Assembly (NCBI GenBank): GCA_963768165.1
Contig: CAVYHJ010000002.1
Location: forward strand, 620,001 to 684,000
From: CAVYHJ01 sp963768165 [NCBI: uncultured bacterium]
GTDB lineage: Bacteria; UBP4; UBA4092
Direction of reading: 5' to 3'
DNA: 64,000 nt
A program made the position numbers and the translations under genes. Positions 15,974 to 38,881 of the stretch are shown in pieces. The notes beneath the pieces are model-generated. The model made no database searches. It had not been told where the DNA came from and saw nothing but the letters and a program-made list of their open reading frames with translations. The first letter of the stretch is position 1; each line of letters begins with the position of its first letter.

Positions 15974-15988
15974 GCAGGATTTATGCCA
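15974..15988 (-). promoter_or_regulatory. Sigma-54-type promoter of hypF
   Basis: The minus strand reads TGGCATAAATCCTGC: GG and GC are separated by exactly 10 bases, and TGGCAT matches the -24 consensus. The -12 is CTGC rather than TTGC. It lies 85 bases before the hypF start. Confidence 0.55.
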
Positions 15989-16068
15989 TACCAGTTATAA
16001 TAAACAATTGAAATTAATAGTGTTATATGAAACAAATAGGACTTAATATAGTGGAATTATATCGAGAA

Positions 16069-16087
16069 TTGTCATGAATAAAGACAA
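16069..16087. promoter_or_regulatory. Inverted repeat TTGTC-N9-GACAA, candidate activator site
   Basis: The arms are separated by 9 bases and the site lies about 90 bases upstream of the hypF sigma-54 promoter, the usual place for an enhancer-binding protein. The same arms with the same spacing lie upstream of the hydrogenase operon (33484-33502). Confidence 0.45.
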
Positions 16088-16232
16088 AATCACTATATTT
16101 ATTACATTAATATCTGATTTTATTGGTGTTATGATTTTTTCCATTCCTTTAAACAAACGTCCAATTTTAAGACAAAATATATCTATATTTAGACACCTGA
16201 AAAGTCATGATGGATGAAACTTTTAACGAACG

Positions 16233-17434
16233 AGACCTCTGAAAAAGTATTGTTTTTGTTTTACAAGAGTGATAAATAAAAAAAGAGAAGGTTGAGGAGG
16301 AGGAAAGAAGCGGTTGGGAGAGTCCAACGACCTTTGGAGGAGTCTCCAAAGAGGAGAATACACTGGTATTCTTGTCCTTTTCGGATTAAGGAGACACAAC
16401 TCCCCTGCGTTTGACCATCCGGACCAGATTCTCGGCCATGACCGCCATCTCCAAGAATTGTTTCACTCGTTGTAATCCGCTGACCGTCATCTTGCGTACC
16501 CCGCGCCAGAGTTTGAGACACCCGAAATACGATTCAATCAGATACCTTTTCTTCTTTTTCCAGCGCTCATTATGTCGTACATCTTCAGGTTTCTGGACTC
16601 GGGCATGGCGCTGATTCCGTAAAATCCCATCCACGATCCCATGGCGTCCCAACCACTCCCGATTCCGTTTCGCATCAAATCCCCGGTCCGCCAGCACGAT
16701 CCCTTCCTCTCCGGTCAATACTTGCGGCAGTAAAAATACATCATGAATATTCGCAGGCACGACTAACGGTCGTCCCCCCAACGTCGTCTTGGGATCATAG
16801 CGTAAACACACATTATATCCATGCACGATCTTCAAGGGTCCTCGTTTCCCGGTTCCTGCTTCCGGTTCTAAGGGTTTCCCTTCTGGATCTGTGGCCTCTT
16901 TCTTATGATGACTTTCCACGAGGGTCGCATCCACAATCACCACACTCCCTTTCTTTAAGGACACCTTCTGCCGTCCTAACTGTTCTTCAAACCAGCCCCA
17001 CAACTCGTTCTCCACTCCCGCCTGGCGAATTCTCTCCCGAAACTTCACCAGCGTCGTATCATCCGGCACTTCCTCCCCAAAAGCAATCCCCACAAACTCC
17101 CGAAAGGACAACCGATCCGTAACCTCTTCAACTACCCGCACATCTGACAGATTATAAATCCTTTCCAACAACCATATCCGAAATAATACCTCCGGCGCAT
17201 ACCCCGGACGTCCCTGATCCTTCGAATACATTCCTTCCAACCGTTGATGCAGTCCCTTCCAATCCAGCATCCCTTTCAGTTTCTCCAAAAACTTCCCGGT
17301 CTTCGTATCCAACTCCATCCATCCTTGCAGTAAGTGTCCTTGTCCTTTTTCTTCCCCGATCATGTGTCTCTCCTTTTAGGTTTTCCTTCCCATACTCTCA
17401 ATCCCAACAAAAGGTAGACTTTTTCAGAGGTCTC
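16233..17434 (-). mobile_element. IS5-like insertion sequence, complete
   Basis: The element is 1202 bp. Terminal inverted repeats GAGACCTCTGAAAAAGT (16233-16249) and its exact complement (17418-17434) flank one transposase gene. A 4-base target duplication GAAC lies on both sides (16229-16232 and 17435-17438). The target was the loop of the palindrome CTTTTGAC-GAAC-GTCAAAAG. An uninterrupted copy of this sequence survives at 18060-18079, which confirms the boundaries. Confidence 0.9.
16386..17363 (-). CDS. IS5-family transposase (DDE)
   Basis: 325 residues. The N-terminal DUF772-like domain (YAPEVLFRIWLLERIYNLSD, DDTTLVKFR) is followed by a DDE catalytic core: D in VIVDATLVES, D in VLADRGFDAKR and E in RYLIESYFGCLKLWRG. 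Length and motifs fit the IS5 group. The frame is uninterrupted, so the enzyme is probably active. An AGGAGAG ribosome site precedes the ATG. G+C and codon use look higher than in neighbouring island genes, which agrees with recent arrival. It probably also mobilised the MITE at 17539-17710, which shares its ends. Confidence 0.92.
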   Translation of the reverse strand: MIGEEKGQGHLLQGWMELDTKTGKFLEKLKGMLDWKGLHQRLEGMYSKDQGRPGYAPEVLFRIWLLERIYNLSDVRVVEEVTDRLSFREFVGIAFGEEVPDDTTLVKFRERIRQAGVENELWGWFEEQLGRQKVSLKKGSVVIVDATLVESHHKKEATDPEGKPLEPEAGTGKRGPLKIVHGYNVCLRYDPKTTLGGRPLVVPANIHDVFLLPQVLTGEEGIVLADRGFDAKRNREWLGRHGIVDGILRNQRHARVQKPEDVRHNERWKKKKRYLIESYFGCLKLWRGVRKMTVSGLQRVKQFLEMAVMAENLVRMVKRRGVVSP

Positions 17435-17765
17435 GAACGTCAAAAGTTTGAGAATTTTAATGGATCAGAGTATTTCGCCATTTGGCGAAATATTTTTATA
17501 GAATTGATTTTATTGAAGATAAAAAACTATTAACAAATGAGTCCTCTGAAAAAGTGTGCCACCCGATTTTGTCATTCTGACCCTGAGCTTGCGAAGGGGA
17601 AGAATCCCTGTGTTCTACCTGATGTAAAGCGACTTTAGACCGGGATTCTTCGTCGCTACGCTCCCCAGAATGACACGGTTTGTCGTTTTAGTGACTTTTT
17701 CAGAGATCACAAATGTTAAAGGTTTTTCCCGGTCTTAAGGTTTCCTAATTTGCCGAGGTGCTCAT
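17435..17765. other. Intergenic stretch between the IS element and the 65-residue gene
   Basis: It contains the right half of the interrupted palindrome (GAACGTCAAAAG), a short hairpin TTTCGCCA/TGGCGAAA near 17469-17488, and the MITE 17539-17710. No gene is seen. Confidence 0.55.
17539..17710. mobile_element. 172-bp MITE related to the IS5-like element
   Basis: The ends GAGTCCTCTGAAAAAGT (17539-17555) and ACTTTTTCAGAGATCAC (17694-17710) nearly match the IS inverted repeats. A 4-base duplication AAAT flanks it (17535-17538 and 17711-17714). It has no coding capacity. The interior is an inverted pair (GTCATTCTG...AGAATCCC at 17571-17608 against GGGATTCTTC...CAGAATGAC at 17642-17674). The same duplication length as the IS supports mobilisation in trans. 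Confidence 0.8.
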
Positions 17766-17963
17766 TTATTTCTTTTCGGAGAGATATTCACGAAAGGGGC
17801 GGGAAGGTTCATTTTTCCGTTTGGCAATGAGTGACAAATCCAATAGGTCTTCCCGTAATTCTTTTTCCTCGGCAATCCGCAGGATGACATGATTACGTTC
17901 CTTTTTGGATAATGATTTTAAGGCGGTGATAAATACTTCTGCTGTGGCTTGAGACCCGGTCAT
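17766..17963 (-). CDS. Small antitoxin-like protein
   Basis: A 65-residue charged, helical protein: TAEVFITALKSLSKKERNHV then RIAEEKELREDLLDLSLI and a basic/proline C-terminus (RKNEPSRPFREYLSEKK). Small proteins of this composition (ALKSLSKKER..., REDLLDL...) are common as orphan antitoxin-like genes. A good AAGGAGA ribosome site precedes the ATG (reverse of 17966-17975). No toxin gene follows; the MITE lies directly downstream and may have separated or replaced a partner. Function is not established. Confidence 0.5.
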   Translation of the reverse strand: MTGSQATAEVFITALKSLSKKERNHVILRIAEEKELREDLLDLSLIAKRKNEPSRPFREYLSEKK

Positions 17964-18059
17964 TATTACATTCTCCTTTCACTCTCTATACAAGATAAAT
18001 TTTATCAAAATACAAGCATTATGCCAATTAAACCTCTGAAAAAATCTTGATGGATATAA

Positions 18060-18079: not shown

Positions 18080-18101
18080 CGGATGGATTTCAGAGAGTTG
18101 G

Positions 18102-19441: not shown

Positions 19442-19510
19442 CCTCCTTGTGATAATAAGAGATTCTTCCATCTCTTTATATATCCTAAGGTCAGAAAAAT
19501 AATAATGGAA

Positions 19511-23688: not shown

Positions 23689-24363
23689 TTATTTCAAGGA
23701 TACCGAAGGGATGGGAGATTTTTGGGTTTGTTGCGCAAGCCAGGCAATCCATTGATCCATGCCCTGACCGGTTTTGCAGGAAAGTTCAAAGACGGGGGCT
23801 TGGGGATTGAGTTTATGTAAATCTTCGTAGAATTGTTCTTTACGAAATTCCAGATAGGGTAACAAATCAATTTTATTCAGGATGACACAAGTCGCGTCAC
23901 GGAAGAGTTTGGGATATTTGAGAATTTTGTCATCCCCTTCGGGTACACTGAGAACAGCAATTTTGGCGGATTCGCCGATATCGAATTCCGCGGGACAAAC
24001 CAAATTCCCGACATTTTCAATAAACAGAATATCCAGCGAATTCAAATCCACATTTTCCAACGCGTGATGCACCAGGTTGGCATCCAGATGGCAGGAACCT
24101 TCGGTTAATAGTTGAACGACCGGCACATTATGTTTTTGAATCCTATCGGCATCCCGTGTGGTCGCCAGGTCTCCTTCCAAAACGAAAATATTGTACGCGT
24201 CCCGCAATCGGTCAATGGTGCATTCCAGGATGGAGGTTTTTCCGGAACCGGGTGAACTCATCAGATTCAGACAGAGGATTTGTTTCTCCAACAAGGTTTT
24301 CCGGGTTCGCTGTGCCCAGTCATCATTGGCTTTCATTAACCGTTTGACAATTTTTATTTCCAT
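23689..24363 (-). CDS. hypB: Hydrogenase nickel incorporation GTPase HypB
   Basis: The GTPase that, with HypA, inserts Ni into the hydrogenase large subunit. 224 residues with P-loop SSPGSGKT near residue 38, the metal/nucleotide switch segment EGDLATTRDADRI, ENVGNLVCPAEFDIG and the guanine motif NKIDLL. There is no histidine-rich nickel-storage stretch at the N-terminus, so this is the short form. It follows hypA by 12 bases and is the last gene of the hydrogenase operon before the TIR island. Confidence 0.96.
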   Translation of the reverse strand: MEIKIVKRLMKANDDWAQRTRKTLLEKQILCLNLMSSPGSGKTSILECTIDRLRDAYNIFVLEGDLATTRDADRIQKHNVPVVQLLTEGSCHLDANLVHHALENVDLNSLDILFIENVGNLVCPAEFDIGESAKIAVLSVPEGDDKILKYPKLFRDATCVILNKIDLLPYLEFRKEQFYEDLHKLNPQAPVFELSCKTGQGMDQWIAWLAQQTQKSPIPSVSLK

Positions 24364-24375: not shown

Positions 24376-24723
24376 TCAATTATCCGACAATTCAATCGAA
24401 TCAAGAACCAATTCATTGCCCGACACCATGTTCACATCTACCGACCCGCACTTGGGACAAATAAAATCATATTCTGTCACTTCCACTCGCTCCGCGCATT
24501 TTCGGCAAACAATACAAATCGGAATTTCCTTCAGGAGCAATTGTGACCCTTCCAACCGAGTGCCTTGACTAGCTACATCATAACAGAATCTCATCATTTC
24601 AGGAACAAACTGGCGCATTTTCCCCATAGTGACAGAGACGGATTTTACCTTGCGTTCGGGATATGGTTTGATTTCTAATTGAACGCTTTCGACTAATTCC
24701 TCTATGACAGAGACTTCATGCAT
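24376..24723 (-). CDS. hypA: Hydrogenase nickel metallochaperone HypA
   Basis: 115 residues from MHEVSVIEELVESVQ. The His2/Glu3 nickel site fixes the start at 24723 rather than four codons upstream. The zinc site is C-x2-C...C-x2-C (CRKCAERVEVTEYDFICPKC). It sits between the maturation protease and hypB. Its leader consists of heptamer repeats (24728-24760), and the unit TGGACTT supplies the only ribosome-site-like GGA, 7 bases from the ATG. Confidence 0.94.
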   Translation of the reverse strand: MHEVSVIEELVESVQLEIKPYPERKVKSVSVTMGKMRQFVPEMMRFCYDVASQGTRLEGSQLLLKEIPICIVCRKCAERVEVTEYDFICPKCGSVDVNMVSGNELVLDSIELSDN

Positions 24724-24727
24724 AATT

Positions 24728-24760
24728 AAGTCCAAAGTTCAAAGTCTAAAGTCCAAAGTA
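24728..24760. repeat. Heptanucleotide tandem repeat in the hypA leader
   Basis: Period-7 units AAGTCCA, AAGTTCA, AAGTCTA, AAGTCCA, AAGTAAT. On the coding strand these are TGGACTT/TAGACTT units, the same family as the hypD-hypE junction (12244-12278). It takes up most of the gap between the protease gene and hypA. Confidence 0.7.
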
Positions 24761-24786: not shown

Positions 24787-25329
24787 TTACCCTTTTGACC
24801 CTTGCATGATCCGGCGGTAACAAGGAGGAGGGAATCCCGGTTTCCTGGGTAATTCACCGGTTTTGACCATAGCAAGGATGTCCACCACCATGTCATCGGC
24901 GGCTTGCTTAGTTTTCTCGGTTAACTCCGTGCCGAAATTAAAATCAGTGCCTTTTACTGAAAAGAGCATCCCCGCCGGCGATTTATGATGCAGCGATTGA
25001 CACATACCTAACAGTGTCATGGGAGTCAAATGATGTGAAATCGCGCCGACTTCATATCCCGGTTCAATCACTGTGATTTTAGTCCAATCCTCGACATCGC
25101 TGACATGGCAATCAATAAAAATTACCAAATCATAGTCTTTCGCGGTATCCGCCCATTCAATTTCCAATTGTTGCAGGGTCTCTATGGTGACATAGTCCGG
25201 CACCATTGGAGTTAATTTCTCAGCAATATACCACCCTACCCGGTCGTCTTTTCGATTGGGATTCCCATAGGCAAGAATGAGAATAGGATTATGATGTGTG
25301 GTTTTGGGTTTTTTTGTATCCGACTCCAT
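24787..25329 (-). CDS. Hydrogenase maturation protease
   Basis: Endopeptidase of the HyaD/HycI/HoxW type that removes the C-terminal tail of the large subunit after Ni insertion. 180 residues: LILAYGNPNRKDDRVGWYIA carries the metal-binding region near the N-terminus (GN-x-x-R-x-D-D-x-V-G), VIFIDCHV contains the second acidic site, and SHHLTP holds the conserved His. It lies 51 bases downstream of hydL, whose [12 protein letters not shown] tail is its expected substrate. Confidence 0.92.
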   Translation of the reverse strand: MESDTKKPKTTHHNPILILAYGNPNRKDDRVGWYIAEKLTPMVPDYVTIETLQQLEIEWADTAKDYDLVIFIDCHVSDVEDWTKITVIEPGYEVGAISHHLTPMTLLGMCQSLHHKSPAGMLFSVKGTDFNFGTELTEKTKQAADDMVVDILAMVKTGELPRKPGFPPPCYRRIMQGSKG

Positions 25330-25380: not shown

Positions 25381-26802
25381 TTATTTTACTAAGGTATCCA
25401 GGTTCTTTCCATCTGAATCTATTAATTGAATCACCAGGGGCATTTCGCCAATAGCATGAGTTGAACAGGATAAACACGGGTCATAACAGCGGATGGCGGC
25501 TTCCACCCGATTGAGCATACCCTCTTTTAAATTGGTGCCGTCCACATATTGCAGGGCAATCGCTTTAACCGCTTGATTCATCGCCAGATTATTATGGCCA
25601 GTAGCGACTACCAGATTTACTTTTTCAATCCGGCCCGCGCCATCCACCCAATAATGATGAAACAAAGTCCCGCGCGGGGCTTCGATAATCCCGACACCTT
25701 CTCCATTTTTGGGGAAACCGTTATTGATGATATCCTGGCCGAGGATATCGGGGTCATGGAGTAATTGTTGAATTCGTTCAATTCCAAAAAGAGCTTCTAT
25801 CATGCGGGCATAATGATAATAGAAAGAACTATGTTGAATTCCACCATTGAGCGATTTCCAATTGAGCCATTCCTTATGCGCCAGGGGTGTGCTGATTTTA
25901 TCAATCAGATTCAACCGTGCCAGGGGGCCTACACGATAGGCGCCTTCCGGATATCCTTTTTCTTTGAAGAACGGGAATTTAAGATAAGACCAGTCTTCGG
26001 TAGCTTCTCCGATAATCGAAAGATAATCGGAAGGGGGAACTTGATCCACCAGAATATTTCCATCAGTATCTTTGACGCGGAGTTTTCCATCGTAATGTTC
26101 CAAACTTCCGTCCGGTTGAACCAGGCCCATGAAATTGGAATCAAAGGAGGCGAAGGTATCCACTTCTACTTGATGTTTTTCAATATACCCTTTAATTAAA
26201 TCAATGGCGAATTGCGCCGAACCGATAGATTCCTGAATATCGCGTAGCAATTCGTCTCTTTTCTCCGCGCTGAAAGGTTTATTCACGCCGCCGGGAACAG
26301 TGAACTCCGCATGGATTTTCCTGCCCGCCACCGCCTTAATGGTTTCCTGTCCAAATTTACGCAACCGGATTCCGCGTAGAGCGATCTCCGGATGTTTTTC
26401 AATCAGTCCCATGATATTGCGTGCCGCCGGGTCGGAATCATATCCCAACAATAAATCCGGTCCTGAAAGATGGAAGAAACTCAAAGCATGAGACTGAACC
26501 AATTGTCCCATGTGCATGAGTTCGCGCATGAGTTTCGCGGGTTTGGGAATCTCAACTCCGAGAATCGCATCCCCGGCTTTGGACGATGCCAGCAGATGGC
26601 TGACAGGACAAATTCCGCAAATCCGGGCAGTGATACTGGGCATTTCGGAGAAATGCCGGCCTTCACAGAATTTCTCGAATCCACGAAATTCAACCACGTG
26701 AAACCGGGCATCATTCACCTTTTTATTTTCATCCAGATGAATGGTGATTTTGGCATGTCCTTCGATCCGGGTCACGGGGTTTATGGTAATGGTCTCACTC
26801 AT
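25381..26802 (-). CDS. hydL: [NiFe] hydrogenase large subunit (HydL/HoxH-like, group 3)
   Basis: The catalytic subunit carrying the Ni-Fe(CN)2CO centre. 473 residues. L1 motif [10 protein letters not shown] (residues 60-69) with ligands C62 and C65; L2 motif DPCLSCSTH (441-449) with C443 and C446. The 24 residues after H449 are the tail removed by the maturation protease downstream. The sequence is of the cytoplasmic group 3 type, with no Tat partner. Gene order hydC-hydB-hydA-hydS-hydL matches the NAD- and ferredoxin-linked bifurcating complex HydABCSL known from Acetomicrobium. A plain NAD-reducing HoxFUYH-type enzyme is the alternative. Confidence 0.95.
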
Positions 26803-29533: not shown

Positions 29534-31439
29534 GTGCCGCTACCCCTTTCTCCGGAAGAGAGTTCAATACGTTCCGCAACCTTGCCTCCGGTCCTGTTAT
29601 TTTATAAACTGCATCGAATTTACAGGCATCGAAACAAGCACCGCAACGGATGCAGATATTTTCCACAATATAAAATTTCTTAAGATTATCTTTTTTGAAA
29701 ATGGTGGTAACCGGACACGCGCGCGCGCAGAGACTGCAACCTGTGCAATTTTCTTCCAAGATTTTGAATTCCAGTAATTCTTTGCAAACTTTTGCGGGAC
29801 AACTTTTATCCACGATATGTGCGAGATATTCATCCCGGAAATGCCGTAAGGTGGAAAGAATCGGATTGGGCGCTGTTTGGCCCAAACCACAGAGGCTGGT
29901 TTCTCTTACCGTTTCGCAAAGTTCTTCGAGAATCAGCAAATCGTCCATCGTTCCGTATCCTTGGGTAATTTTTTGTAATATTTTATGCATTTGTACAGTT
30001 CCAACACGGCAAGGAGGACATTTTCCGCAAGATTCGTCAAGACAGAATTCCAAGAAAAATCGGGCGACATCAACCATACAGGAATCTTCATCCATCACGA
30101 TTAACCCGCCGGAACCCATCATAGCGCCCAGTTCGATTAACTTTTCATAATCGAGAGATGTATCGAGATATTGTTCCGGGATACAACCTCCTGAAGGGCC
30201 GCCTATTTGTACTGCTTTCAATTTTTTTTCATTGGGAATTCCTCCTCCAATATCGTAAACCAATTCCCGAAGAGTTGTTCCCATAGGAACTTCAACAAGT
30301 CCCGTATTGACCACTTTTCCGGTCAAGGCGAAGATTGCGGTACCTTTGCTTTTTTGTGTTCCAATAGTAGCAAACCAAGTTCCGCCTCGTGCAATAATTT
30401 CTCTCACGTTGGAGTAGGTCTTGACGTTATTAATCAAAGTAGGTTTTTTGAAAAGTCCTGAAATCGCAGGAAACGGCGGACGGGGACGGGGCATTCCCCG
30501 TTTTCCTTCCACCGAAGCAATCAAAGCGGTCTCTTCGCCGCAGACGAAAGCGCCCGCGCCAAGTCGAATTTCCACATCGAAAGAAAATCCTTGAGCTAAA
30601 ATATTTTCACCCAAAAGACCTGTTTTCCTGGATTGTTGAATTGCCAACTCCAACCGTTTGACGGCGATGGGGTATTCCGCACGAAGATAGACGTAACCTT
30701 TATTGGCGCCGACAGCATAGGCGGCAATCGCCATCCCTTCCAGTAATCTATGCGGGTCAGCTTCAATGATTCCACGGTCCATAAACGCACCGGGGTCGCC
30801 TTCATCCGCGTTGCAGATAACATATTTTTTGTCGGATTTGGCGTTTTTAACAAATTCCCATTTCGTACCGGTGGGGAATCCAGCACCGCCCCTTCCACGC
30901 AAACCGCTTTTTTTCATTTCCCCGACCACATCGTCCGGTTTCATTTCCGAAAGAGCTTTTGCCAAGGCGGCGTACCCATCCTGCGCGATATACTCTTCTA
31001 TACTTTCCGGATCAATGATTCCAAGATTGGACAGGACAATTCTTTTCTGTTTATTAAAGAAACCGGCGGTACCGGCATTTTGTTGATGTTCCAGTGTAAA
31101 TTCCAATACGGGTTTTTTACCCTTCAAATGTTCCTTAACGACCCGGATGGCTTTTTCCGGTGTCATTTGAACATACGTAAACTTCTCAGCTTTTTTATTA
31201 ACTACGGTTAGAATGGGTTCGAGATTATCCAGCCCGCTTCCCCCGTCCATGGATACCCTGACATCGTCAAGCTCTTGTTTCTCGATTTCATTTTGCAGCG
31301 CTTTCATGACGTCACGGGAACCCGCCGCAAGCCCAATAGTGCCCATGCTGACTGCGACCCGGAATTCATCGCCATTATTCTTTATATCCAATTTTCTTCT
31401 TATGTCATCACGTAGTTTAATTAATTCTTGTATATTCAT
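29526..31439 (-). CDS. hydB: NuoF/HydB-like NAD(H)-, FMN-binding subunit
   Basis: 637 residues. The N-terminal thioredoxin-like domain (about 20-120) lacks the cysteines of a [2Fe-2S] site (VSMGTIGLAAGS). The NADH/FMN domain has GRGGAGFPTGTKWEF and CNADEGDPGAFMDR. SLBB and the [4Fe-4S] site follow (ESCGKCPPCRVG). Two C-terminal ferredoxin clusters (CTGCSLCARACP; CIRCGACFDAC) are present, as in HydB/HndC and not in NuoF. It is the expected site of flavin-based bifurcation between NAD(H) and ferredoxin. It lies between hydC and hydA. Confidence 0.9.
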   Translation of the reverse strand: MNIQELIKLRDDIRRKLDIKNNGDEFRVAVSMGTIGLAAGSRDVMKALQNEIEKQELDDVRVSMDGGSGLDNLEPILTVVNKKAEKFTYVQMTPEKAIRVVKEHLKGKKPVLEFTLEHQQNAGTAGFFNKQKRIVLSNLGIIDPESIEEYIAQDGYAALAKALSEMKPDDVVGEMKKSGLRGRGGAGFPTGTKWEFVKNAKSDKKYVICNADEGDPGAFMDRGIIEADPHRLLEGMAIAAYAVGANKGYVYLRAEYPIAVKRLELAIQQSRKTGLLGENILAQGFSFDVEIRLGAGAFVCGEETALIASVEGKRGMPRPRPPFPAISGLFKKPTLINNVKTYSNVREIIARGGTWFATIGTQKSKGTAIFALTGKVVNTGLVEVPMGTTLRELVYDIGGGIPNEKKLKAVQIGGPSGGCIPEQYLDTSLDYEKLIELGAMMGSGGLIVMDEDSCMVDVARFFLEFCLDESCGKCPPCRVGTVQMHKILQKITQGYGTMDDLLILEELCETVRETSLCGLGQTAPNPILSTLRHFRDEYLAHIVDKSCPAKVCKELLEFKILEENCTGCSLCARACPVTTIFKKDNLKKFYIVENICIRCGACFDACKFDAVYKITGPEARLRNVLNSLPEKGVAAHG

Positions 31440-31459: not shown

Positions 31460-31948
31460 TTATTGATATTTTTTAAGTACCTTGGAAATCTTATCGGGTG
31501 TTATTTTGGCAAAGACATCCTGGTCAACGACCACTGCCGGTGCCAACCCGCAAGCCCCAAGGCAACGTGCCTTACACAAAGTAAACATATCGTCCCGCGT
31601 GGTTTCGCCATCGTCAATCTTCAAGTCCCGGCTCAACCGGTCAAAGACCCGGTCACCGCCTTTGACATAACAAGCGGTTCCCATGCAAACCGTCACCGTG
31701 TGTTTCCCCTTGGGAACCGTACTGAAAAAATGATAGAAAGTTACTACCCCGTAAATTTGACTTAACGGGACGCGCATTTTGATTGAAATATAATGCAAGA
31801 CATCATCTCCAAGATAGCCAAATAATTGCTGGGACTGGTGCAAGATTTGAATGAGGGCATCGGGAGCCCAGTTGTAACGATCCATAACTTCGTCCAACTT
31901 CGCAAAGCGTATATCCCCACTGGGATGTTCAGCTAATATTTGTGCCAT
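31460..31948 (-). CDS. hydC: NuoE/HydC-like [2Fe-2S] subunit
   Basis: 162 residues, thioredoxin-like fold with the four ligands C88, C93, C129 and C133 in VCMGTACYVKGG and CLGACGLAP. The helical N-terminus is typical (PDALIQILHQSQQLFGYL). It transfers electrons next to HydB. It starts 12 bases after the CBS/HATPase gene and 20 bases before hydB. NuoE of complex I and HoxE are the closest alternatives by sequence; operon context decides for the hydrogenase. Confidence 0.93.
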   Translation of the reverse strand: MAQILAEHPSGDIRFAKLDEVMDRYNWAPDALIQILHQSQQLFGYLGDDVLHYISIKMRVPLSQIYGVVTFYHFFSTVPKGKHTVTVCMGTACYVKGGDRVFDRLSRDLKIDDGETTRDDMFTLCKARCLGACGLAPAVVVDQDVFAKITPDKISKVLKKYQ

Positions 31949-31960: not shown

Positions 31961-32917
31961 TTACCTGCCTGCTTCCAAAGGAACCAGCGTATCCACTTTT
32001 TTTAGAACAATTTCCACTGTCAACCGGGTACTGCCCCCGACTTTGGAATCAATATGAAACTGATCTACCGACATTTTAATATTCGGCAAACCCATTCCCG
32101 CGCCGAACCCCATAGCCCTCACTTGATCACTGGCAGTAGAAAATCCGGGATGCAATGCCATTTCCAAGTCCGCGATTCCGGGTCCTTCATCTTCCGCTTC
32201 AATAATAATTTTGCCGTGTTCAATCCATGCTCTCAAGGTTCCGCCAATCGAATGAATCACAATATTGGTTTCCGCTTCGTAGGCCGCTATAGCCGCTCGC
32301 CGGATGATTTCCGGTTTGATTCCCATTCCTTGAAGTTGTTTTTTTAATTGGGAGGAGAGCAATCCAATATTCTCGAAATCCCCGGCACGCAATTTGGCAT
32401 CTAGTAAATCTTGTTTGCCTTCTTTCCCAAACGCATAATTTTGAGCCATACTCGCGGCTTCTTTAGCGGCGACTTCGTCCACGATCATATTTAATTCAAA
32501 TAACAATGTATCCAAAATATCCCCGCGGGTCATAATCCCCAAGAGATTGCCCTCTCTATCAACAACCGGAAAACGGCCATACGGATATTTCTGGAAAGTA
32601 TTCAGAGCTTTTATTAAAGTAGAATTCGGGTCAAGAGTTTTGACATTACGAGTCATTCTTTTTTCAACCACCGAATTGATTTCTTTTTCATCCAGTGCTC
32701 GAATAATATCTTCCACGCTGATAATACCGACTAATTTTTTTCCCTGAACAACGGGGAGACCGGAAATTCGTTTATCCCTCAGAATCGTGCGGGCTTCCCA
32801 CATACTCTTTTCAGGGGAAACGGTACTTACGATTTGAGTCATGGCATCCCGCACTCGCAAACGGTAGGCGAGTTCATGGATAAAACTAAAATTATCAAGT
32901 TCTTTGGACGCTCTCAT
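31961..32917 (-). CDS. CBS-pair protein with C-terminal anti-sigma-like HATPase domain
   Basis: 318 residues from MRASKELDNF. I chose this start at 32917 because the longer frame upstream overlaps the previous gene and lacks homology. Two CBS motifs (about 20-140: VRDAMTQIV...SGLPVVQG, then GRFPVVDREGNLLGIMTRGD) are followed by a linker helix and an RsbW-like ATPase domain (AAYEAETNIVIHS, EDEGPGI, GFGAGMGLPNIK). No phosphoacceptor His box is seen. The same pair, DRTGG plus CBS/HATPase, heads NuoE-NuoF-hydrogenase operons in anaerobes. An adenylate-sensing regulator of the complex is plausible but unproven. Confidence 0.82.
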   Translation of the reverse strand: MRASKELDNFSFIHELAYRLRVRDAMTQIVSTVSPEKSMWEARTILRDKRISGLPVVQGKKLVGIISVEDIIRALDEKEINSVVEKRMTRNVKTLDPNSTLIKALNTFQKYPYGRFPVVDREGNLLGIMTRGDILDTLLFELNMIVDEVAAKEAASMAQNYAFGKEGKQDLLDAKLRAGDFENIGLLSSQLKKQLQGMGIKPEIIRRAAIAAYEAETNIVIHSIGGTLRAWIEHGKIIIEAEDEGPGIADLEMALHPGFSTASDQVRAMGFGAGMGLPNIKMSVDQFHIDSKVGGSTRLTVEIVLKKVDTLVPLEAGR

Positions 32918-33254
32918 GGGAATTCTCCATAACCTCAGATAGTTTGATACAAGATTCAAACATAGGATGTTGAGAAACATAAAGGGGAATTCTATGCGCT
33001 TTCGCCAGTCCAATAGTTTCTCCGGGAGGATATTTCCCACGTACGAAAACAACCGCGACGGCTCCGACAATATCCGCCGTTCGAATCACTTGCTGATTAG
33101 TATATCCTGTAAGGATAATAAAATTTCTTTTCTTGGTAGCGAGAATATCGCTCAAGAAATCAGCGGCACACACAGTATTTACATCCGGATTATAATCACT
33201 AACCGAAGAAATTTCGGCAGCATCCAATAATTCTATTATTTTTGATAGTTTCAT
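32895..33254 (-). CDS. DRTGG-domain protein
   Basis: 119 residues from MKLSKIIELLDA. The start at 33254 follows GGAAAGG; a GTG seven codons earlier overlaps the ribosome site. The fold is the small DRTGG/serine-kinase-like domain (VCAADFLSDILA, FIILTGYTNQQVIRTADIVG, VFVRGKYPPGETIGLAKAH). First gene of the hydrogenase operon, directly after a sigma-54 promoter. Its last 23 bases overlap the CBS/HATPase gene. Ligand unknown; nucleotide binding is the family expectation. Confidence 0.82.
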   Translation of the reverse strand: MKLSKIIELLDAAEISSVSDYNPDVNTVCAADFLSDILATKKRNFIILTGYTNQQVIRTADIVGAVAVVFVRGKYPPGETIGLAKAHRIPLYVSQHPMFESCIKLSEVMENSHESVQRT

Positions 33255-33292: not shown

Positions 33293-33308
33293 TGCAACCT
33301 TAATGCCA
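33293..33308 (-). promoter_or_regulatory. Sigma-54 promoter of the hydrogenase operon
   Basis: The minus strand reads TGGCATTAAGGTTGCA: TGGCAT-N5-TTGCA, with GG and GC exactly 10 bases apart, a near-perfect -24/-12 match. Expected transcript start about 33282, 28 bases before the DRTGG ATG, leaving room for its GGAAAGG. Confidence 0.8.
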
Positions 33309-33483
33309 CTTCACAGAAATACATGTATATTATTGATACAGTTATAGATATGAAATATATATAGCTGGCAAATCGGATTCAAGCATTAGAATGTTGTATA
33401 GTAATTAAACACTTTTTTATTTTTTAATAATTAGATTATTGGTATTAATTGAGTTATATAAATCTGTAGTTAAATATTTGAAT

Positions 33484-33502
33484 TTGTCCGATTTCAGGAC
33501 AA
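33484..33502. promoter_or_regulatory. Inverted repeat TTGTCC-N7-GGACAA, candidate activator site
   Basis: Six-base arms, about 180 bases upstream of the sigma-54 promoter. The five-base core and spacing (TTGTC-N9-GACAA) equal those of the site upstream of hypF. Confidence 0.5.
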
Positions 33503-33616: not shown

Positions 33617-34021
33617 TCAAGAGGGATGGGAAACGAGAAAATTTTTATTTTGTTTATCGAGGGCTTTTTCAATAATTTGAATTAAAATACACCAATCAAC
33701 GGGTTTGACACAATAATATAAAATTCCGGCGAGACGGGCATCAATTTCTTTCTGCGGATCATGACAAGCGGCGGTAAAAATAATTTCTATTTCAGGTTTC
33801 ATTTTTTTCAACAAAGAGACGAGCGTGAGCCCTGACAAGTCCGGAAGATTTTCATCTACCACGACCACGCCGACATTTTTATTTAGAATGGTTTTTAAGC
33901 AATCTGCCGCTGTTTGCACTTGCAAGCAATGAATGGATTGGCTTTTTTGTTGGAAGAAACTTTCCAAAACAGGCTGTTTCTCTTGATCCACAATGAGGAA
34001 ACACGGTATATTTTTGTTCAT
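33617..34021 (-). CDS. Single-domain response regulator
   Basis: 134 residues, receiver domain only: acidic pocket near IVDQE, phosphoacceptor Asp in VVVVDENLPDLSG (about residue 56), Thr in FTAAC and the conserved Lys in CVKPVDW. There is no output domain, so it would act by protein contact, in the manner of CheY or Spo0F. It follows the oxidoreductase alpha-beta gene by 66 bases that contain an RNA hairpin. No kinase is adjacent; the kinase at 2.8 kb is one possible partner. Confidence 0.82.
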   Translation of the reverse strand: MNKNIPCFLIVDQEKQPVLESFFQQKSQSIHCLQVQTAADCLKTILNKNVGVVVVDENLPDLSGLTLVSLLKKMKPEIEIIFTAACHDPQKEIDARLAGILYYCVKPVDWCILIQIIEKALDKQNKNFLVSHPS

Positions 34022-34087: not shown

Positions 34088-36349
34088 TTATAATTTTGGG
34101 TTGCCATCCATTTCGAGTAACCGCTGCCACCGTCGGTCAATTTCATTTTGAATTTCCTGGGTCAATTCGCTATATTCCGGTTTTGCCAGATGATTAAAGA
34201 TACTACCCATAATTTTGAATAATTCTGAAATAGGCACTTTCTTTCCAGCTTTTTCAGGGTTGTAATTCACTTTGGTAATCCCGTTTTCCACTTCATATAA
34301 CGGATGCAGGCAGGTTTTAACAGCCAGGTCGATAATCTCCGGCCCTTTGGCAGGTTCCGCACCCCAGTTTAAGGGACACGTGGAAAATACCTTGCCAAAA
34401 ACAAAACCGCCGTTTCGCACAGTTTGCTGGGCTTTGCGCGCTTTGCTAATCATATCCCGTGCATTGGATTCCGCCGCCTGGAATAGATAGGAACAATTGG
34501 TTCCCCGTAATATTTCGATCATATCTTTATGATGCGTTTTCTTTCCTTTTTGCTTCGGACCGAGATACGCATTGCTATTTCTCTGTCCTTTAATCCCGGT
34601 ATAACACAACTGTCCACCGGTATTCATATATCCTTTGTTATCGTATTCAATAAAAATAATTGGATCGTTGCGTAACGCAGAACCAATCAATTGATCCATT
34701 CCGATATCATCCCCACCATCTCCAGAAACACAGATAAAGGTAATTTCTTCTTTGATTTTCCCTTGTGCCCTGAAGCGTTTATACATCTCGACGATACCGG
34801 TTGCCGTACTCGACGCATTATGGAACAGATTATGGAAATAAGGGACTTTAAAACTGGTCAAGGGATACCCGGTCGTGACCACCATTCCACAGCCCGTATT
34901 GAACAAGAAGACCACATGTCCGTCAATTCCTCGCAAGAATAAATTCAAATTGGTAAATATCCCACAACCCGGACATGCAGAATGTTTATCAAAACGATTC
35001 GGCATTGCCGCTAATTTTCGCAAATCAATCTTTTCCATACCCGCGTTCAAGGTACATTCTTCGGCGGTAAGAGGGTCAATGGTTTGAATGGGTTTATAAT
35101 CCGGATTTCCCGGCCATGCCCCATAATATTCTTTGAATTTATTCAAATCCGCTTTGGGTTGTTTAAGTGCTTCTTTTAAGATTTTGATACTATCTTCCGA
35201 AGTAAAAGTTAATCCTCCCAAGCCATAGACCCGGCTGATAATTCGGTTGTCTTTAAAATAACGTTGTAAGGAGGCACCGATTTCATTTGATAAATAATTT
35301 CCAGAACCATATTGAGAAACCCGCTCGGCAACGACAACAACTGAATTATTAGGGATGGCATTGACGATTTCTTTTTCCGGCCAGGGACGTAAAACATACG
35401 GAACCACCAATTTTACTTTATGCCCTTGTTCTCGAAGTACATCAATAGCATTTCGTGCTGCCAACCCAGCCGAATTCAATATTACCAGCGTTGCTTCCGC
35501 GTCATCATCCCCATAGGTCTCTATAAAAGAATATTTCCGACCGCTCATTTGATAAAATTCTTCAAACAAATTTGGTATTAATCCATACGCTTTATCAAAC
35601 TTGGTTTCCATTTGGACTTTGTCATTGATAATATCGTCATTCATGTAGGGACCAAACGTGTGGGGATTTTTTACGTCCAGAATATTTAGCCGTTCCGGTT
35701 TTGGTCCGACATAATTGGCAATATCTTCTCTTCTGGCAAAGACTGAAATCCGCCGGCTGCCGTGAGAAGTCAAAAATCCGTCATAACAAATAATCACCGG
35801 CAAATTCACCGCTTCCGCCAACTTGGTACCAATAATGTTCATATCGTACACGGCTTGTACTGTTGGCGCCAGTAAAATAATCCAGCCCCAACCAAGAGCC
35901 GCGGCTAAATCACTATGTCCGCATTTAATATTCAAGGGACCAGAAATTTCTCTGGCGGATAAATTCAAAACTACCGGTAATCCCGATCCGCTGACCACTG
36001 GCATTTCCTCGGCTTTCAACATTAATCCTTGTGCCGAAGTCACATCCACAGCGCGGCCTCCCGCAATCGCCATTCCGGTGACAATTCCTAGAGCGGCCAA
36101 TTCGCTTGTACCGATAACAAAATTTATATCTGATTTTCCGGCAGCGACAGCTTTACTGACATATTCACCGACTTCTGAAGATGGGGTAATGGGATAATAT
36201 CCTTCTCCATCAAATCCAATATCAATAATGGCGCGTGACGCCGCTTCGTTGCCATTAACAATCACCGGTATTTGCTCGACTTTATTCTTTAAAGATTCTT
36301 TTTCATCAATTTGTGGTTCACTGACCATGACATTTTCTTCAACTTTCAT
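34088..36349 (-). CDS. porAB: 2-oxoacid (pyruvate):ferredoxin oxidoreductase, fused alpha-beta subunit
   Basis: Oxidises a 2-oxoacid, probably pyruvate, to acyl-CoA with reduction of ferredoxin. 753 residues. The alpha part (about 30-430) starts GNEAASRAIIDIG...YPITPSSEV. The beta part (about 460-753) has SACPGCGIFTN (cluster ligands), the TPP-binding GDGGDDIGMDQ...DNKGYMNTGGQ, and a third cysteine region. The fusion and the partner gene 6 bases upstream (gamma-delta) make a two-gene enzyme. Other substrates (2-oxoglutarate, branched 2-oxoacids) cannot be excluded. Confidence 0.88.
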   Translation of the reverse strand: MKVEENVMVSEPQIDEKESLKNKVEQIPVIVNGNEAASRAIIDIGFDGEGYYPITPSSEVGEYVSKAVAAGKSDINFVIGTSELAALGIVTGMAIAGGRAVDVTSAQGLMLKAEEMPVVSGSGLPVVLNLSAREISGPLNIKCGHSDLAAALGWGWIILLAPTVQAVYDMNIIGTKLAEAVNLPVIICYDGFLTSHGSRRISVFARREDIANYVGPKPERLNILDVKNPHTFGPYMNDDIINDKVQMETKFDKAYGLIPNLFEEFYQMSGRKYSFIETYGDDDAEATLVILNSAGLAARNAIDVLREQGHKVKLVVPYVLRPWPEKEIVNAIPNNSVVVVAERVSQYGSGNYLSNEIGASLQRYFKDNRIISRVYGLGGLTFTSEDSIKILKEALKQPKADLNKFKEYYGAWPGNPDYKPIQTIDPLTAEECTLNAGMEKIDLRKLAAMPNRFDKHSACPGCGIFTNLNLFLRGIDGHVVFLFNTGCGMVVTTGYPLTSFKVPYFHNLFHNASSTATGIVEMYKRFRAQGKIKEEITFICVSGDGGDDIGMDQLIGSALRNDPIIFIEYDNKGYMNTGGQLCYTGIKGQRNSNAYLGPKQKGKKTHHKDMIEILRGTNCSYLFQAAESNARDMISKARKAQQTVRNGGFVFGKVFSTCPLNWGAEPAKGPEIIDLAVKTCLHPLYEVENGITKVNYNPEKAGKKVPISELFKIMGSIFNHLAKPEYSELTQEIQNEIDRRWQRLLEMDGNPKL

Positions 36350-36355: not shown

Positions 36356-37297
36356 TTATACCTCTGCCATTTCCCGGGGTAATTGTAACGCTTTTCCCCG
36401 TTTCGATTCGGGACATACTTCCACACATCGCATACACCCTTTACAAAAGGCTGTATCGATTCCTATTACTTTCCCTTCTTTCCAAATAATTCCACCCGGG
36501 TCGGAACAAACGCTCATACATATCGCGCAACCTGAACAAGCTTCCGGTTCAAATTTAGGAACAAAACCATACCCGCTAATTTGGTTGTTACGATTCACGG
36601 TGGAATGATATAACGCATCAATCGCTCCGCCGTTTAACATATTCAAATAACCAATTTCTCCACGGGTAATGGATGGAGAAATCAATGGAAAGGTAGTTTC
36701 TTCCGGGAAATATTCCTTGGTATGAATTTGTGTTGCTTCACGGTATGCGGCAATGTTCGCTTCCTTGGCACGGGGCCAAGTATGCTCAATCGCATCTATC
36801 ACTGCATCTTCGGGGAATCCCATCACTTTAGAAATGATTGCCATTATCGGCATATTTAAACGAGAACCAGTTTTCGCGGCAATTTCCTGGGCATCCAGGC
36901 AAATGACCGTTCCGCTATTAAGTTGTAATTCTTGCCGGATTTCTTTGGGAGAGCGCGTGGTATTGGCAATCACCGTGGCATCTTTATGCAATCCTTTATT
37001 CAAGCCCAGTGGTTTGATAAGTCCCACATGGAAAATTCCAAGAATATGGGGTTTGTTATTGGGACCGACTTCACGAACCGGTTTTCCCAATGGGCAGAAT
37101 CGAACCGATACATCCGTAGGCGTCCCTTTTTTTTCACTCCCGTATCTGGCGTCATAAGCGCCATCCAATCCGAGCGATTCCACGCCGATTTTAAACAATA
37201 ATTTTGCCGCCATATTGGCACCATCGCCACCTATCGCGGATATTAAGATATTACAAAAACCTCTTTGATTTTGATAGGGCAATTTATATTCGTTCAT
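36356..37297 (-). CDS. porGD: 2-oxoacid (pyruvate):ferredoxin oxidoreductase, fused gamma-delta subunit
   Basis: 313 residues. The gamma domain (about 12-190: ILISAIGGDGANMAAKLL, EKKGTPTDVSVRF) is fused to a delta-type ferredoxin with two [4Fe-4S] motifs (CSGCAICMSVC; CKGCMRCVEVC). First gene of the oxidoreductase operon. AAGGAG precedes the ATG, and a sigma-54-type promoter lies 30 bases upstream. Reduced ferredoxin from this enzyme is the likely electron donor to the hydrogenase complex upstream in the window. Confidence 0.88.
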   Translation of the reverse strand: MNEYKLPYQNQRGFCNILISAIGGDGANMAAKLLFKIGVESLGLDGAYDARYGSEKKGTPTDVSVRFCPLGKPVREVGPNNKPHILGIFHVGLIKPLGLNKGLHKDATVIANTTRSPKEIRQELQLNSGTVICLDAQEIAAKTGSRLNMPIMAIISKVMGFPEDAVIDAIEHTWPRAKEANIAAYREATQIHTKEYFPEETTFPLISPSITRGEIGYLNMLNGGAIDALYHSTVNRNNQISGYGFVPKFEPEACSGCAICMSVCSDPGGIIWKEGKVIGIDTAFCKGCMRCVEVCPESKRGKALQLPREMAEV

Positions 37298-37325
37298 CTA
37301 TTTCTCCTTCATTTACTACAGATAT

Positions 37326-37341
37326 CGCATTGATTATGCCA
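37326..37341 (-). promoter_or_regulatory. Sigma-54-type promoter of the oxidoreductase operon
   Basis: The minus strand reads TGGCATAATCAATGCG: TGGCAT-N5-ATGC with the 10-base GG-GC distance. Expected start about 37315, 18 bases before the gamma-delta ATG. A half site GGACAA lies near 37551. Confidence 0.6.
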
Positions 37342-37571
37342 ACTAGGTTATATTTATCAAAACATATTGATTACGTGGATTTTACGGTTATTTATTACAT
37401 ATAAAACATTATTTTCAAGTTCCATAATATGTTCGCTTTTATTACATATTTTCGATGTTATTTAAAAGGGGTTATACAAGTCTTTTGAAATCAATTAGTT
37501 AGAGTGTATCGTTTAAACTAGGAACAACGTCACTGTTAAATACATCGTTTTGGACAAATTAATGTGCGGAA

Positions 37572-38831
37572 TTAAACATTAACTGATTGATAAGAGGACG
37601 GATTCTCTGCATCTACTTTAATTTTCTTAGGTTTTAATTCCTTTTTCAAAATCGGTTGGGCTAATTTCTTCATAGATTTTAATTTCAATTGATACATACC
37701 ATATCTAAGATTTTGCGGGACAAGGTATTTGGCATCATCCGGCTGCACCACCAAGCTGACTTCGATATTCGGTGCCAATCCAATGGGTATCCCTTTTTTC
37801 ATACAAGCCTCATACATATATTTCATTACCTGCCGCATATCTTCATATGCCGGTGACGGATGATTTTCCATCCCTGAACCTTCCAATGGCCGGAAAATAC
37901 AAATGGTGGGAAATGCACCGACGTCTGTAATATAATCAATGGCTTTCAAGGTATCTTCCACGGGTTCCACCCCGGCAATAATCTCACCGGAACATCGGCC
38001 TTTGCCCAATTTTTTAATTGTATATTCCAAGGCTTGAAAAAAGGTTTTTTGACCAATAATTTTCTCTTTTCCCGGCAGGTATTTGGCAAAATATTCAGGG
38101 TTTTGAAATTCATAACAAAAAGAAAAATGATTCGCTCCCAAATCTATTAACCAATCATATTTGTGCAATTGCTTATAGGGAATTGCTTGAACGCCCACCA
38201 GCAGACCGACTTTTTCTTTAATGGCTTTGACATAGGGAGCAACCACTTCCAATCCATGATCTCCTTGATATCCGCTGTTGAAATGAATGAAAGTTGTTCC
38301 GGACTCTTGTTTCGCTGCCAAAGCGACTTCGACTACATCCCCAACATTTTTTTGTTCAATTTCATTGGTTCCGACATTCACTCCCGTGGTACAGAATTTA
38401 CATTGTAATTTTTCGGGATATTTCCAAAATTTGCAGGATTCGCCGATATAAACTCCCAGATAAGTCCCTTGCAAAACACCGATTTGCGTCATGGGAGTGT
38501 CCCGGGATGTTTTCTTGAAGTACCATTTTGGATTTGGCGGGATTTTAATTTTATATTGAAGGTCTTTCGCTGCCTCATCCATCACAAAATAATCGTTTCC
38601 GGTTTTTCTTAAAAGGTATGGAGTGGTTTCCACAAAATCTTCCTCCACCGGCACATTCATCCAAATATCTTTCAAATCTCCCGGAATAATTAATTCCAAC
38701 CCACTCCCTAATCCAGCCCGGGTTCGGGAAAACAACCGCGCATCATTCTCTAATGTACAGGAATCATGGATTTTAATTCCCTTACAGAATAAATCTATCT
38801 CTAACTCACATGGATTCAATCGCTTATTCAT
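37572..38831 (-). CDS. Radical SAM protein with atypical cysteine spacing
   Basis: 419 residues. The only cysteine triplet suited to the cluster is C133-x10-C144-x2-C147 (GESCKFWKYPEKLQCKFC), longer than the usual CX3CX2C. The barrel that follows looks like radical SAM (IHFNSGYQGDHGLEVV, VGVQAIPYK, GRCSGEIIAGVEP, FRPLEGSGM). The first 120 residues are a separate domain with no recognised motif. It stands directly upstream of the oxidoreductase genes on the same strand, with its own sigma-54-like promoter, so it may be part of the same regulon. Substrate unknown. Confidence 0.75.
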   Translation of the reverse strand: MNKRLNPCELEIDLFCKGIKIHDSCTLENDARLFSRTRAGLGSGLELIIPGDLKDIWMNVPVEEDFVETTPYLLRKTGNDYFVMDEAAKDLQYKIKIPPNPKWYFKKTSRDTPMTQIGVLQGTYLGVYIGESCKFWKYPEKLQCKFCTTGVNVGTNEIEQKNVGDVVEVALAAKQESGTTFIHFNSGYQGDHGLEVVAPYVKAIKEKVGLLVGVQAIPYKQLHKYDWLIDLGANHFSFCYEFQNPEYFAKYLPGKEKIIGQKTFFQALEYTIKKLGKGRCSGEIIAGVEPVEDTLKAIDYITDVGAFPTICIFRPLEGSGMENHPSPAYEDMRQVMKYMYEACMKKGIPIGLAPNIEVSLVVQPDDAKYLVPQNLRYGMYQLKLKSMKKLAQPILKKELKPKKIKVDAENPSSYQSVNV

Positions 38832-38866
38832 ATTCCTGCCTCGTTTCTAGTTAACTAATCTATTCC

Positions 38867-38881
38867 GCAATATCTATACCA
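38867..38881 (-). promoter_or_regulatory. Possible sigma-54 promoter of the radical SAM gene
   Basis: The minus strand reads TGGTATAGATATTGC: GG and GC are 10 bases apart with TTGC intact, but TGGTAT deviates from TGGCAC. Expected start about 38855, 24 bases before the ATG, with GAGG between. Confidence 0.45.

What the first reader, a model, noticed from the sequence alone, without database searches (positions are those of the whole stretch)
15974..38881. Four sigma-54-type promoters and a shared inverted repeat link hydrogenase, Hyp and pyruvate oxidation
Seen: minus-strand -24/-12 motifs with exact 10-base GG-GC spacing before hydrogenase (33293-33308, near-perfect), hypF (15974-15988), oxidoreductase (37326-37341) and radical SAM gene (38867-38881). 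In the three genes with short leaders, the motif is 30-40 bases before the ATG. An inverted repeat TTGTC-N9-GACAA occurs at 33484-33502 and 16069-16087, upstream of two of these promoters at enhancer distance. Inferred: the NtrC-type regulator at 3920-5299 binds this repeat. A similar sequence at 2708-2727, before its own operon, hints at autoregulation.
Basis: partly seen in the sequence, partly recalled or inferred. Interest (0 to 1): 0.78.

Follow-up and report, generated by a model that had tools for sequence, protein, structure and literature searches.

The report
Sigma-54 regulon for fermentative hydrogen metabolism
In an uncultured bacterium, genes that turn pyruvate into acetate and hydrogen gas carry the same uncommon kind of on-switch, and the matching genes of another phylum carry that kind of switch with a different control site, perhaps worked by an oxygen-sensing regulator.

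Summary
The four -24/-12 motifs are real, and a fifth, the best in the window, was missed (7592-7608). Five of 31 upstream regions carry one; simulation expects 0.10 and the reverse strand has none. They head units for a HydABCSL-type [NiFe] hydrogenase with hypAB, for hypF-hypD-hypE plus ADP-forming acetyl-CoA synthetase, for pyruvate:ferredoxin oxidoreductase, and for two radical SAM genes. The repeat TTGTC-N9-GACAA, at two of the five, is unlikely to be chance (P about 0.0005); hypF has a second, diverged copy. That the regulator at 3920-5299 binds it is not supported: no clear ortholog in eight relatives, each with 5-12 comparable paralogs, and no matching site at 2708. Independent support comes from Verrucomicrobia: a dyad TGACA-N3-TGTC lies 85-115 bases before a -24/-12 element in 8 of 8 genomes searched (17 places, control 0), at 8 hydrogenase operons, 6 hypB-hypF operons, 2 heme-synthase-like genes and 1 cytochrome gene. 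There the candidate activator is a globin-sensor kinase/NtrC-type pair, near the operon in three genomes. The same metabolic module is thus probably under sigma-54 in two phyla, with different enhancer sites.

The parts
33293..33309 (-). -24/-12 element GTGGCATTAAGGTTGCA before the hydrogenase operon
   Evidence: 15.3 bits, 38 bases before the ATG at 33254
33484..33502 (.). dyad TTGTCCTGAAATCGGACAA, candidate enhancer site, 174 bases between it and the -24/-12 element
15973..15989 (-). -24/-12 element ATGGCATAAATCCTGCT before hypF
   Evidence: 13.8 bits
16069..16087 (.). dyad TTGTC-N9-GACAA, candidate enhancer site, 79 bases between it and the element
16157..16175 (.). second, diverged dyad (TTGTCTTAAAATTGGACGT on the minus strand), 14 of 17 bases as the hydrogenase site
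37326..37342 (-). -24/-12 element TTGGCATAATCAATGCG before the pyruvate:ferredoxin oxidoreductase unit
   Evidence: 13.6 bits
38866..38882 (-). -24/-12 element CTGGTATAGATATTGCG before a radical SAM gene
   Evidence: 12.5 bits
   Evidence: 16.1 bits
32895..33254 (-). first gene of the hydrogenase operon: protein of 119 aa with no Pfam or NCBIfam match
31961..33070 (-). CBS-domain plus HATPase protein (listed ORF; it overlaps the gene before it, so the true start is probably near 32900)
31460..31948 (-). HydC-like subunit (2Fe-2S thioredoxin-like)
29526..31439 (-). HydB-like subunit (Nuo51 FMN domain)
27344..29533 (-). HydA-like subunit; best solved relative 7t2r chain A
26815..27351 (-). HydS, [NiFe] hydrogenase small subunit
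25381..26802 (-). HydL, [NiFe] hydrogenase large subunit, 57% identical to 7t2r chain D
24787..25329 (-). hydrogenase maturation protease
24376..24735 (-). HypA
23689..24363 (-). HypB (CobW/HypB/UreG domain)
13568..15889 (-). HypF
12268..13374 (-). HypD
11187..12320 (-). HypE (AIR synthase-related), named by family and position
8996..11137 (-). ADP-forming acetate--CoA ligase type protein, after hypF-hypD-hypE
36356..37297 (-). 2-oxoacid:ferredoxin oxidoreductase gamma plus ferredoxin (delta) part
34088..36349 (-). 2-oxoacid (pyruvate-type):ferredoxin oxidoreductase alpha-beta fusion
33617..34021 (-). receiver-only response regulator between POR and hydrogenase
37572..38831 (-). radical SAM protein (NF045502 variant_rSAM)
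6728..7384 (-). radical SAM protein, TatD-nuclease-associated family (TIGR04038)
2771..3910 (+). PAS-HisKA-HATPase sensor kinase; not tied to the repeat by any test
3920..5299 (+). NtrC-family response regulator with GSFTGA motif; not tied to the repeat by any test

Best explanation
The window holds a sigma-54-dependent regulon for anaerobic pyruvate disposal. Sigma-54 RNA polymerase uses -24/-12 promoters before five transcription units, among them the HydABCSL-type [NiFe] hydrogenase with hypAB, hypF-hypD-hypE with an ADP-forming acetyl-CoA synthetase, and pyruvate:ferredoxin oxidoreductase. An enhancer-binding protein of the NtrC family, not identified in this organism, binds TTGTC-N9-GACAA sites 79-174 bases upstream of the hydrogenase and hypF promoters and drives them together, so that the enzyme and its maturation factors are made at once. 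Shown by sequence: promoter motifs, shared dyad, gene content. Inferred: binding, the activating signal (probably lack of oxygen or a reduced state) and the H2-evolving direction. In Verrucomicrobia the same module has sigma-54-type promoters with another enhancer, TGACA-N3-TGTC, usually as a pair 30 bases apart; the candidate activator there is a globin-sensor kinase/NtrC-type pair.
For: Window: 5 of 31 upstream regions against 0.10 expected, reverse control 0; dyad statistics and second copy; gene families. RpoN in the nearest held genome. Verrucomicrobia: tandem dyad 30 bases apart in 8 of 384 genomes of the class, 15 places, no control match; 7 of those 8 are among the 11 of 384 with the CBS-HATPase gene of the operon (where at most five candidates a genome were scored). 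The -24/-12 starts 100-111 bases after the second dyad's start at six hydrogenase operons and 90-91 at five of six hypB operons (in the sixth, G006, it fell below the matrix threshold but fits the pattern). Dyad plus -24/-12 in 8 of 8 genomes, 17 places, control 0, each followed within 21 bases by an open frame of more than 60 codons in the same orientation. The Verrucomicrobia operons L002 and L004 also hold ADP-forming acetyl-CoA synthetase and POR. After-the-fact lead within UBP4: in G002 one of three exact repeats lies 177 bases before a 16.5-bit -24/-12 site.
Against: The window's own genome is not held. In UBA6127 hypF (53% identical) has no -24/-12 site of 10 bits or more upstream, its hydrogenase promoter lies off the contig, and its POR gamma has no match. 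The exact repeat occurs 5 times in G001 and 3 times in G002 per strand, against 4 and 4 in the control, and all eight places lie inside open frames, none of them a hydrogenase, Hyp or POR gene. Three of the five window promoters lack the dyad. Of 12 distinct Verrucomicrobia loci whose operon start was read, 4 (L007, L010, L014, L015) lack the dyad-promoter module. No transcript or binding data.
Confidence: 0.75

Rival explanations
1. One reading: the two-component pair at 2771-5299 is the regulator of this regulon, binds TTGTC-N9-GACAA and regulates itself.
For: It is an NtrC-family activator with receiver, AAA+ and Fis-type domains and a GSFTGA motif, the only one among the 40 window proteins scanned with Pfam. 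One of the five promoters (7592-7608) lies 2.3 kb past its end.
Against: 28 kb from the hydrogenase; eight relatives carry 5 to 12 comparable proteins each; no ortholog group among 30 Verrucomicrobia proteins; no dyad with up to 2 mismatches before its own operon.
Confidence: 0.15
2. The promoters are sigma-54-dependent, but the repeat is a chance dyad or the site of another kind of regulator (for example a repressor or redox regulator), and each operon has its own activator.
For: The dyad is at only 2 of 5 promoters, is not enriched in UBA6127, and one of its copies is degenerate.
Against: P about 0.0005 for a shared dyad with G/C in both arms, plus a second copy before hypF; position at enhancer distance; the same plan in Verrucomicrobia.
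Confidence: 0.2
3. The -24/-12 motifs are chance matches in AT-rich spacers.
For: The whole-window scan has 10 matches of at least 12 bits against 3.8 expected, several inside genes; the matrix was recalled, not fitted.
Against: 5 of 31 upstream regions against 0.10 expected and none on the reverse strand; the same promoter type before the matching genes in another phylum.
Confidence: 0.04

Closest known systems
Sigma-54 regulons of proteobacterial hydrogenases (activator names HoxA, HupR, FhlA recalled; PMC12316311, passages seen)
   Same: sigma-54 promoters before hydrogenase and hyp genes, NtrC-family activation
   Different: Here a soluble HydABCSL-type enzyme with POR and ADP-forming acetyl-CoA synthetase, in UBP4 and Verrucomicrobia; in the passages shown PMC12316311 reports hydrogenase enrichment for Proteobacteria
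NiFe-HydABCSL of Acetomicrobium mobile (PMC8880783, passages seen; PDB 7t2r)
   Same: Same subunit set; HydL 57% identical; the operon there also has HydD, HydP and HisK genes
   Different: The word promoter does not occur in the main text; regulation not described in the passages seen
Hnd, bifurcating [FeFe] hydrogenase of Solidesulfovibrio fructosivorans (PMC10084766, passages seen)
   Same: A bifurcating hydrogenase under strong transcriptional control
   Different: The authors predict a Rex site in its promoter; other enzyme class
NmpRSTU of Myxococcus xanthus (PMC11841059, passages seen)
   Same: Oxygen-responsive signalling to an NtrC-like regulator, paired dyads, sigma-54 promoters; the text holds the word globin 4 times
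   Different: Site is GCGCA-N5-TGCGC; hydrogenase does not occur in the text; orthology with the Verrucomicrobia pair not tested
QseF/GlrR of enterobacteria (PMC8745638, passage seen)
   Same: Site TGTC-N10-GACA is close to the window's TGTC-N9-GACA
   Different: Spacing differs by one base; sites lie in the glmY promoter; P0002 scores far below the GlrR cut-off (376.9 against 763 bits)
Sigma-54 regulome of Desulfovibrio vulgaris (PMC4641369, passages seen)
   Same: Sigma-54 control of pyruvate metabolism genes; activator motifs of TGT and ACA half-sites 9, 11 or 12 apart
   Different: Pyruvate formate-lyases in the passages seen; hydrogenase has 0 occurrences in the main text

Membership tests
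sigma-54-dependent promoter | GG-N10-GC with -24/-12 consensus in the upstream region, right orientation | tested here: met
   five sites
sigma-54-dependent promoter | rpoN in the same genome | not testable with these tools
   own genome not held; nearest relative G001 has it
sigma-54-dependent promoter | upstream site of an enhancer-binding protein | tested here: inconclusive
   dyad at 2 of 5 promoters
sigma-54-dependent promoter | transcription lost without sigma-54 | not testable with these tools
   needs experiment
HydABCSL-type electron-bifurcating [NiFe] hydrogenase | HydA, HydB, HydC, HydS and HydL genes together | tested here: met
HydABCSL-type electron-bifurcating [NiFe] hydrogenase | reversible electron bifurcation activity | not testable with these tools
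   needs enzyme assay
regulon of the window's NtrC-type regulator (3920-5299) | matching site before its own operon | tested here: not met
regulon of the window's NtrC-type regulator (3920-5299) | conserved linkage of an ortholog to the target genes | tested here: inconclusive
   no clear ortholog found to test linkage with
GlrR/QseF family | score above the family cut-off | tested here: not met
   376.9 bits, cut-off 763
Verrucomicrobia dyad regulon (GACA-N3-TGTC) | GACA-N3-TGTC dyads before the -24/-12 element | tested here: not met
   no exact match in the window, and none of the 9 matches with one mismatch lies before one of the five promoters

The most novel reading that the evidence does not exclude
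Across at least two phyla, bifurcating [NiFe] hydrogenase, its maturation genes, POR and ADP-forming acetyl-CoA synthetase form one sigma-54 regulon whose promoter type persists while enhancer and activator are exchanged. In Verrucomicrobia a protoglobin-PAS histidine kinase with its NtrC-type partner reads oxygen and switches on hydrogen-evolving fermentation together with anaerobic heme synthesis.
Probability: 0.38. Interest if true: 0.7.

Novelty: new variant of a known kind. Interest (0 to 1): 0.57.

Why it matters
Bifurcating [NiFe] hydrogenases are known from structure, but the listings showed no paper on their sigma-54 regulation. A defined promoter, paired enhancer sites at fixed spacing and a nearby globin kinase/activator pair make the control of fermentative hydrogen production in uncultured phyla testable with DNA-binding and reporter assays, without culturing the organisms.

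Tried and rejected
Viral contigs hold no relative of HydA by tblastn. The exact repeat in UBP4 genomes G001 and G002: 5 and 3 sites per strand against 4 and 4 in the control, all inside open frames. One of them, L088 in G002, lies 177 bases before a 16.5-bit -24/-12 site, nearly the 174 bases of the window's hydrogenase site. The repeat lies in the start of a divergent gene; the genes after the promoter are a proline-rich protein, a protein that reads like a corrinoid-activating 2Fe-2S protein, and proteins that read like Fur, FeoB and an iron-dependent regulator (named by eye, no family search). I left it as an open lead rather than as support. An orthologous hypF promoter in G001 was looked for and not found. 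POR gamma has no match in G001 and three weak ones in G002. The small first-gene protein has only a 20% match in G001; the 1861 bases around it show no -24/-12 site. The NtrC-type protein beside the hydrogenase operon of L006 was considered as the Verrucomicrobia regulator and dropped: at E <= 1e-130 it has matches in only 3 of 11 genomes, itself included. The motif at 18011-18027 (12.4 bits) lacks the GC of -12; taken as chance. The IS5-type element next to hypF was checked as the source of the repeats: its ends are 16217-16260 and 17406-17449, so both hypF sites lie outside it. L134 (G214) has a tandem dyad without a -24/-12 site; taken as chance or unrelated. The dyad at the globin-kinase operon start overlaps a TTGACA that may simply be a -35 box, and is found in G003, G005 and G006 but not G004 or G059, so autoregulation there is only a hint.
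Full report
The observation. The four -24/-12 motifs of the finding are in the sequence with exact GG-N10-GC spacing. Over the whole window there are 10 matches of at least 12 bits against 3.8 expected, several of them inside genes, so the matrix alone is not proof. Restricted to the 31 upstream regions of at least 40 bases, 5 carry a match of at least 12 bits; simulation gives a mean of 0.10 and a maximum of 2 in 1000 runs, and the reverse strand gives 0.

The repeat. TTGTC-N9-GACAA is exact only at 16069-16087 and 33484-33502. Simulated pairs of regions of the same composition share some identical 5+5 dyad in 4.45% of cases, and one with at least two G/C per arm in 0.05%. A second site before hypF, 16157-16175, has 14 of 17 bases of the hydrogenase site, reached by 2 of 1000 simulations. 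An IS5-type element with inverted ends at 16217-16260 and 17406-17449 lies upstream; both hypF sites lie outside it. The POR and the two radical SAM promoters lack the dyad. The sequence named at 2708-2727 is not similar within two mismatches.

What the genes are. The hydrogenase operon encodes HydC, HydB, HydA, HydS and HydL; HydL and HydA find the bifurcating NiFe-HydABCSL enzyme 7t2r as best solved relative, and HydL is 57% identical to it. A maturation protease, HypA and HypB follow. The next unit is hypF-hypD-hypE with an ADP-forming acetate--CoA ligase type protein; upstream lie POR and radical SAM genes. Together they would convert pyruvate to acetyl-CoA, acetate, ATP and H2 (established pathway knowledge). 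Direction and bifurcation are inferred.

Relatives. One genome scan with a two-sequence HydL alignment kept the best 80 of 398 relatives. The nearest is UBP4_UBA6127 (77%), then Verrucomicrobia (64-70%). UBA6127 has RpoN. Its hydrogenase promoter is off the contig and its hypF has no -24/-12 site of 10 bits or more upstream, which counts against conservation within UBP4. The eight exact repeats of the two UBP4 genomes all lie inside open frames; one of them, in G002, lies 177 bases before a 16.5-bit -24/-12 site, close to the 174 bases at the window's hydrogenase, and is an open lead.

Verrucomicrobia. In L002, L003 and L004 a -24/-12 site directly precedes an operon that begins with the acetyl-CoA synthetase (a fragment of it in L003) and goes on with the CBS-HATPase gene and the hydrogenase; L002 and L004 also show hypB, hypF, hypD, hypE and POR. 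Upstream lie two dyads GACA-N3-TGTC 30 bases apart. The tandem pattern occurs in 8 of 384 genomes of the class at 15 places, and the reversed control has none. Seven of the 8 are among the 11 of 384 genomes with the CBS-HATPase gene (at most five candidates a genome were scored). The 15 sites stand before hydrogenase operons (six), before hypB-hypF (six), in G044 before a gene fragment most like NirJ1/AhbC radical SAM proteins and one weakly like a corrinoid protein (both below family cut-offs), and once in G214 without a -24/-12 site. The -24/-12 begins 110-111 bases after the start of the second dyad at five hydrogenase operons (100 in G004) and 90-91 at five of six hypB operons, a difference of about two helical turns. 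The composite of dyad, 85-115 bases and -24/-12 occurs in 8 of 8 genomes searched at 17 places, control 0: eight hydrogenase operons, six hypB operons, two genes whose best family is AhbD heme synthase (below its cut-off) and one NapC/NirT-type cytochrome gene. These eight genomes were chosen because seven of them had shown the dyads and one (G006) a single dyad, so this call measures extent within the clade, not frequency. Of 12 distinct loci whose operon start was read, 4 (L007, L010, L014, L015) lack the module; L010 and L014 have -24/-12 matches of 12.5 and 10.6 bits without it. The window has no GACA-N3-TGTC dyad at its promoters.

Which activator. The window regulator's best-scoring relative among eight genomes is 45% identical, and each genome has 5 to 12 such proteins. 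I compared 30 NtrC-family proteins of five Verrucomicrobia genomes (31 regions, one gave no open frame). One ortholog group, here called R, is encoded 4.7 kb (G003), about 5 kb (G005, where the frame is shorter, 406 aa) and 14.6 kb (G004) upstream of the hydrogenase dyads, next to a protoglobin-PAS-HisKA kinase gene; in other genomes it lies on other contigs. At E <= 1e-150 it occurs in 11 of 384 genomes (four candidates a genome scored), including 6 of the 8 with tandem dyads. It is missing from G044, whose seven NtrC-family proteins include no member, and from G214; it is present in G007, which has the composite site, and in G008, G035, G043 and G188, which have no tandem dyad. The globin part is found beside it in 9 of the 12 loci; in G188 and the second G004 copy the kinase match lacks it, and in G065 no such kinase is found. 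Shared ancestry can explain part of this, so it is a candidate, not a demonstration. A GACA-N3-TGTC dyad sits at the start of the kinase operon in G003, G005 and G006 but not G004 or G059, and half of it coincides with a possible -35 box. The window regulator is not in that group.

Known systems. Sigma-54 control of hydrogenase and hyp genes is reported for Proteobacteria (PMC12316311, passages). QseF/GlrR binds TGTC-N10-GACA (PMC8745638, passage), close to the window's repeat. Paired dyads, an NtrC-like regulator and oxygen sensing occur together in M. xanthus NmpRSTU (PMC11841059, passages). For the bifurcating [FeFe] enzyme Hnd a Rex site is predicted (PMC10084766, passages). The HydABCSL paper names HydD, HydP and HisK genes in the operon but the word promoter does not occur in its main text (PMC8880783, passages). 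Paper searches for sigma-54 with bifurcating hydrogenase, for HydABCSL, and for globin-coupled sensors with sigma-54 or NiFe-hydrogenase listed nothing that describes this regulon (titles and abstract starts read).

Verdict. The promoters are very probably sigma-54 promoters, and the shared repeat is probably an activator site. The named regulator is a guess that the evidence does not favour. The wider result is a sigma-54-type regulon for one metabolic module in two phyla with different enhancer sites.

Noticed in passing
window 15918-15962: A 19-base-pair hairpin (18 of 19 pairs; folding energy of the leader -31.2 kcal/mol) lies between the hypF promoter and its ATG, starting about where the transcript would begin; no U-run follows, and its arm has no other match with up to one mismatch in the window.
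   Followed up: partly
window 16217-23578: An IS5-type element and three pentapeptide-TIR proteins sit between hypB and hypF, which are neighbours in Verrucomicrobia; this looks like an insertion of possible defence genes into the hydrogenase cluster.
   Followed up: partly
window 17450-18070: Further stretches like the IS end (32-37 bases, 76-79% complementary to it) lie beside the IS element.
   Followed up: no
window 250-1821: HEPN (LA2681-like) protein with a weak TPR match, near the edge of the window.
   Followed up: no
window 52607-53176: Short protein related to the photosynthetic reaction-centre cytochrome c subunit (PF02276).
   Followed up: no
window 49445-52417: 990-aa protein with no Pfam match.
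   Followed up: no
L185:6824-7426: HupE/UreJ-family gene between the globin-kinase operon and the hydrogenase operon in G005, with a GACA-N3-TGTC dyad starting 136 bases upstream.
   Followed up: partly
L144, L147 (G044): The tandem dyad also precedes gene fragments like a corrinoid protein (weak) and a NirJ1/AhbC radical SAM protein, hinting at a wider anaerobic regulon.
   Followed up: partly
L088:1501-1713 (G002): In a second UBP4 genome the exact repeat lies 177 bases before a 16.5-bit -24/-12 site; downstream genes read like a corrinoid-activating protein and iron-uptake genes.
   Followed up: partly
L025:4841-4857: A lone strong -24/-12 match 52 bases before a 179-aa open frame at the HydC gene in a Phycisphaerae genome, perhaps a third lineage with this control.
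   Followed up: no
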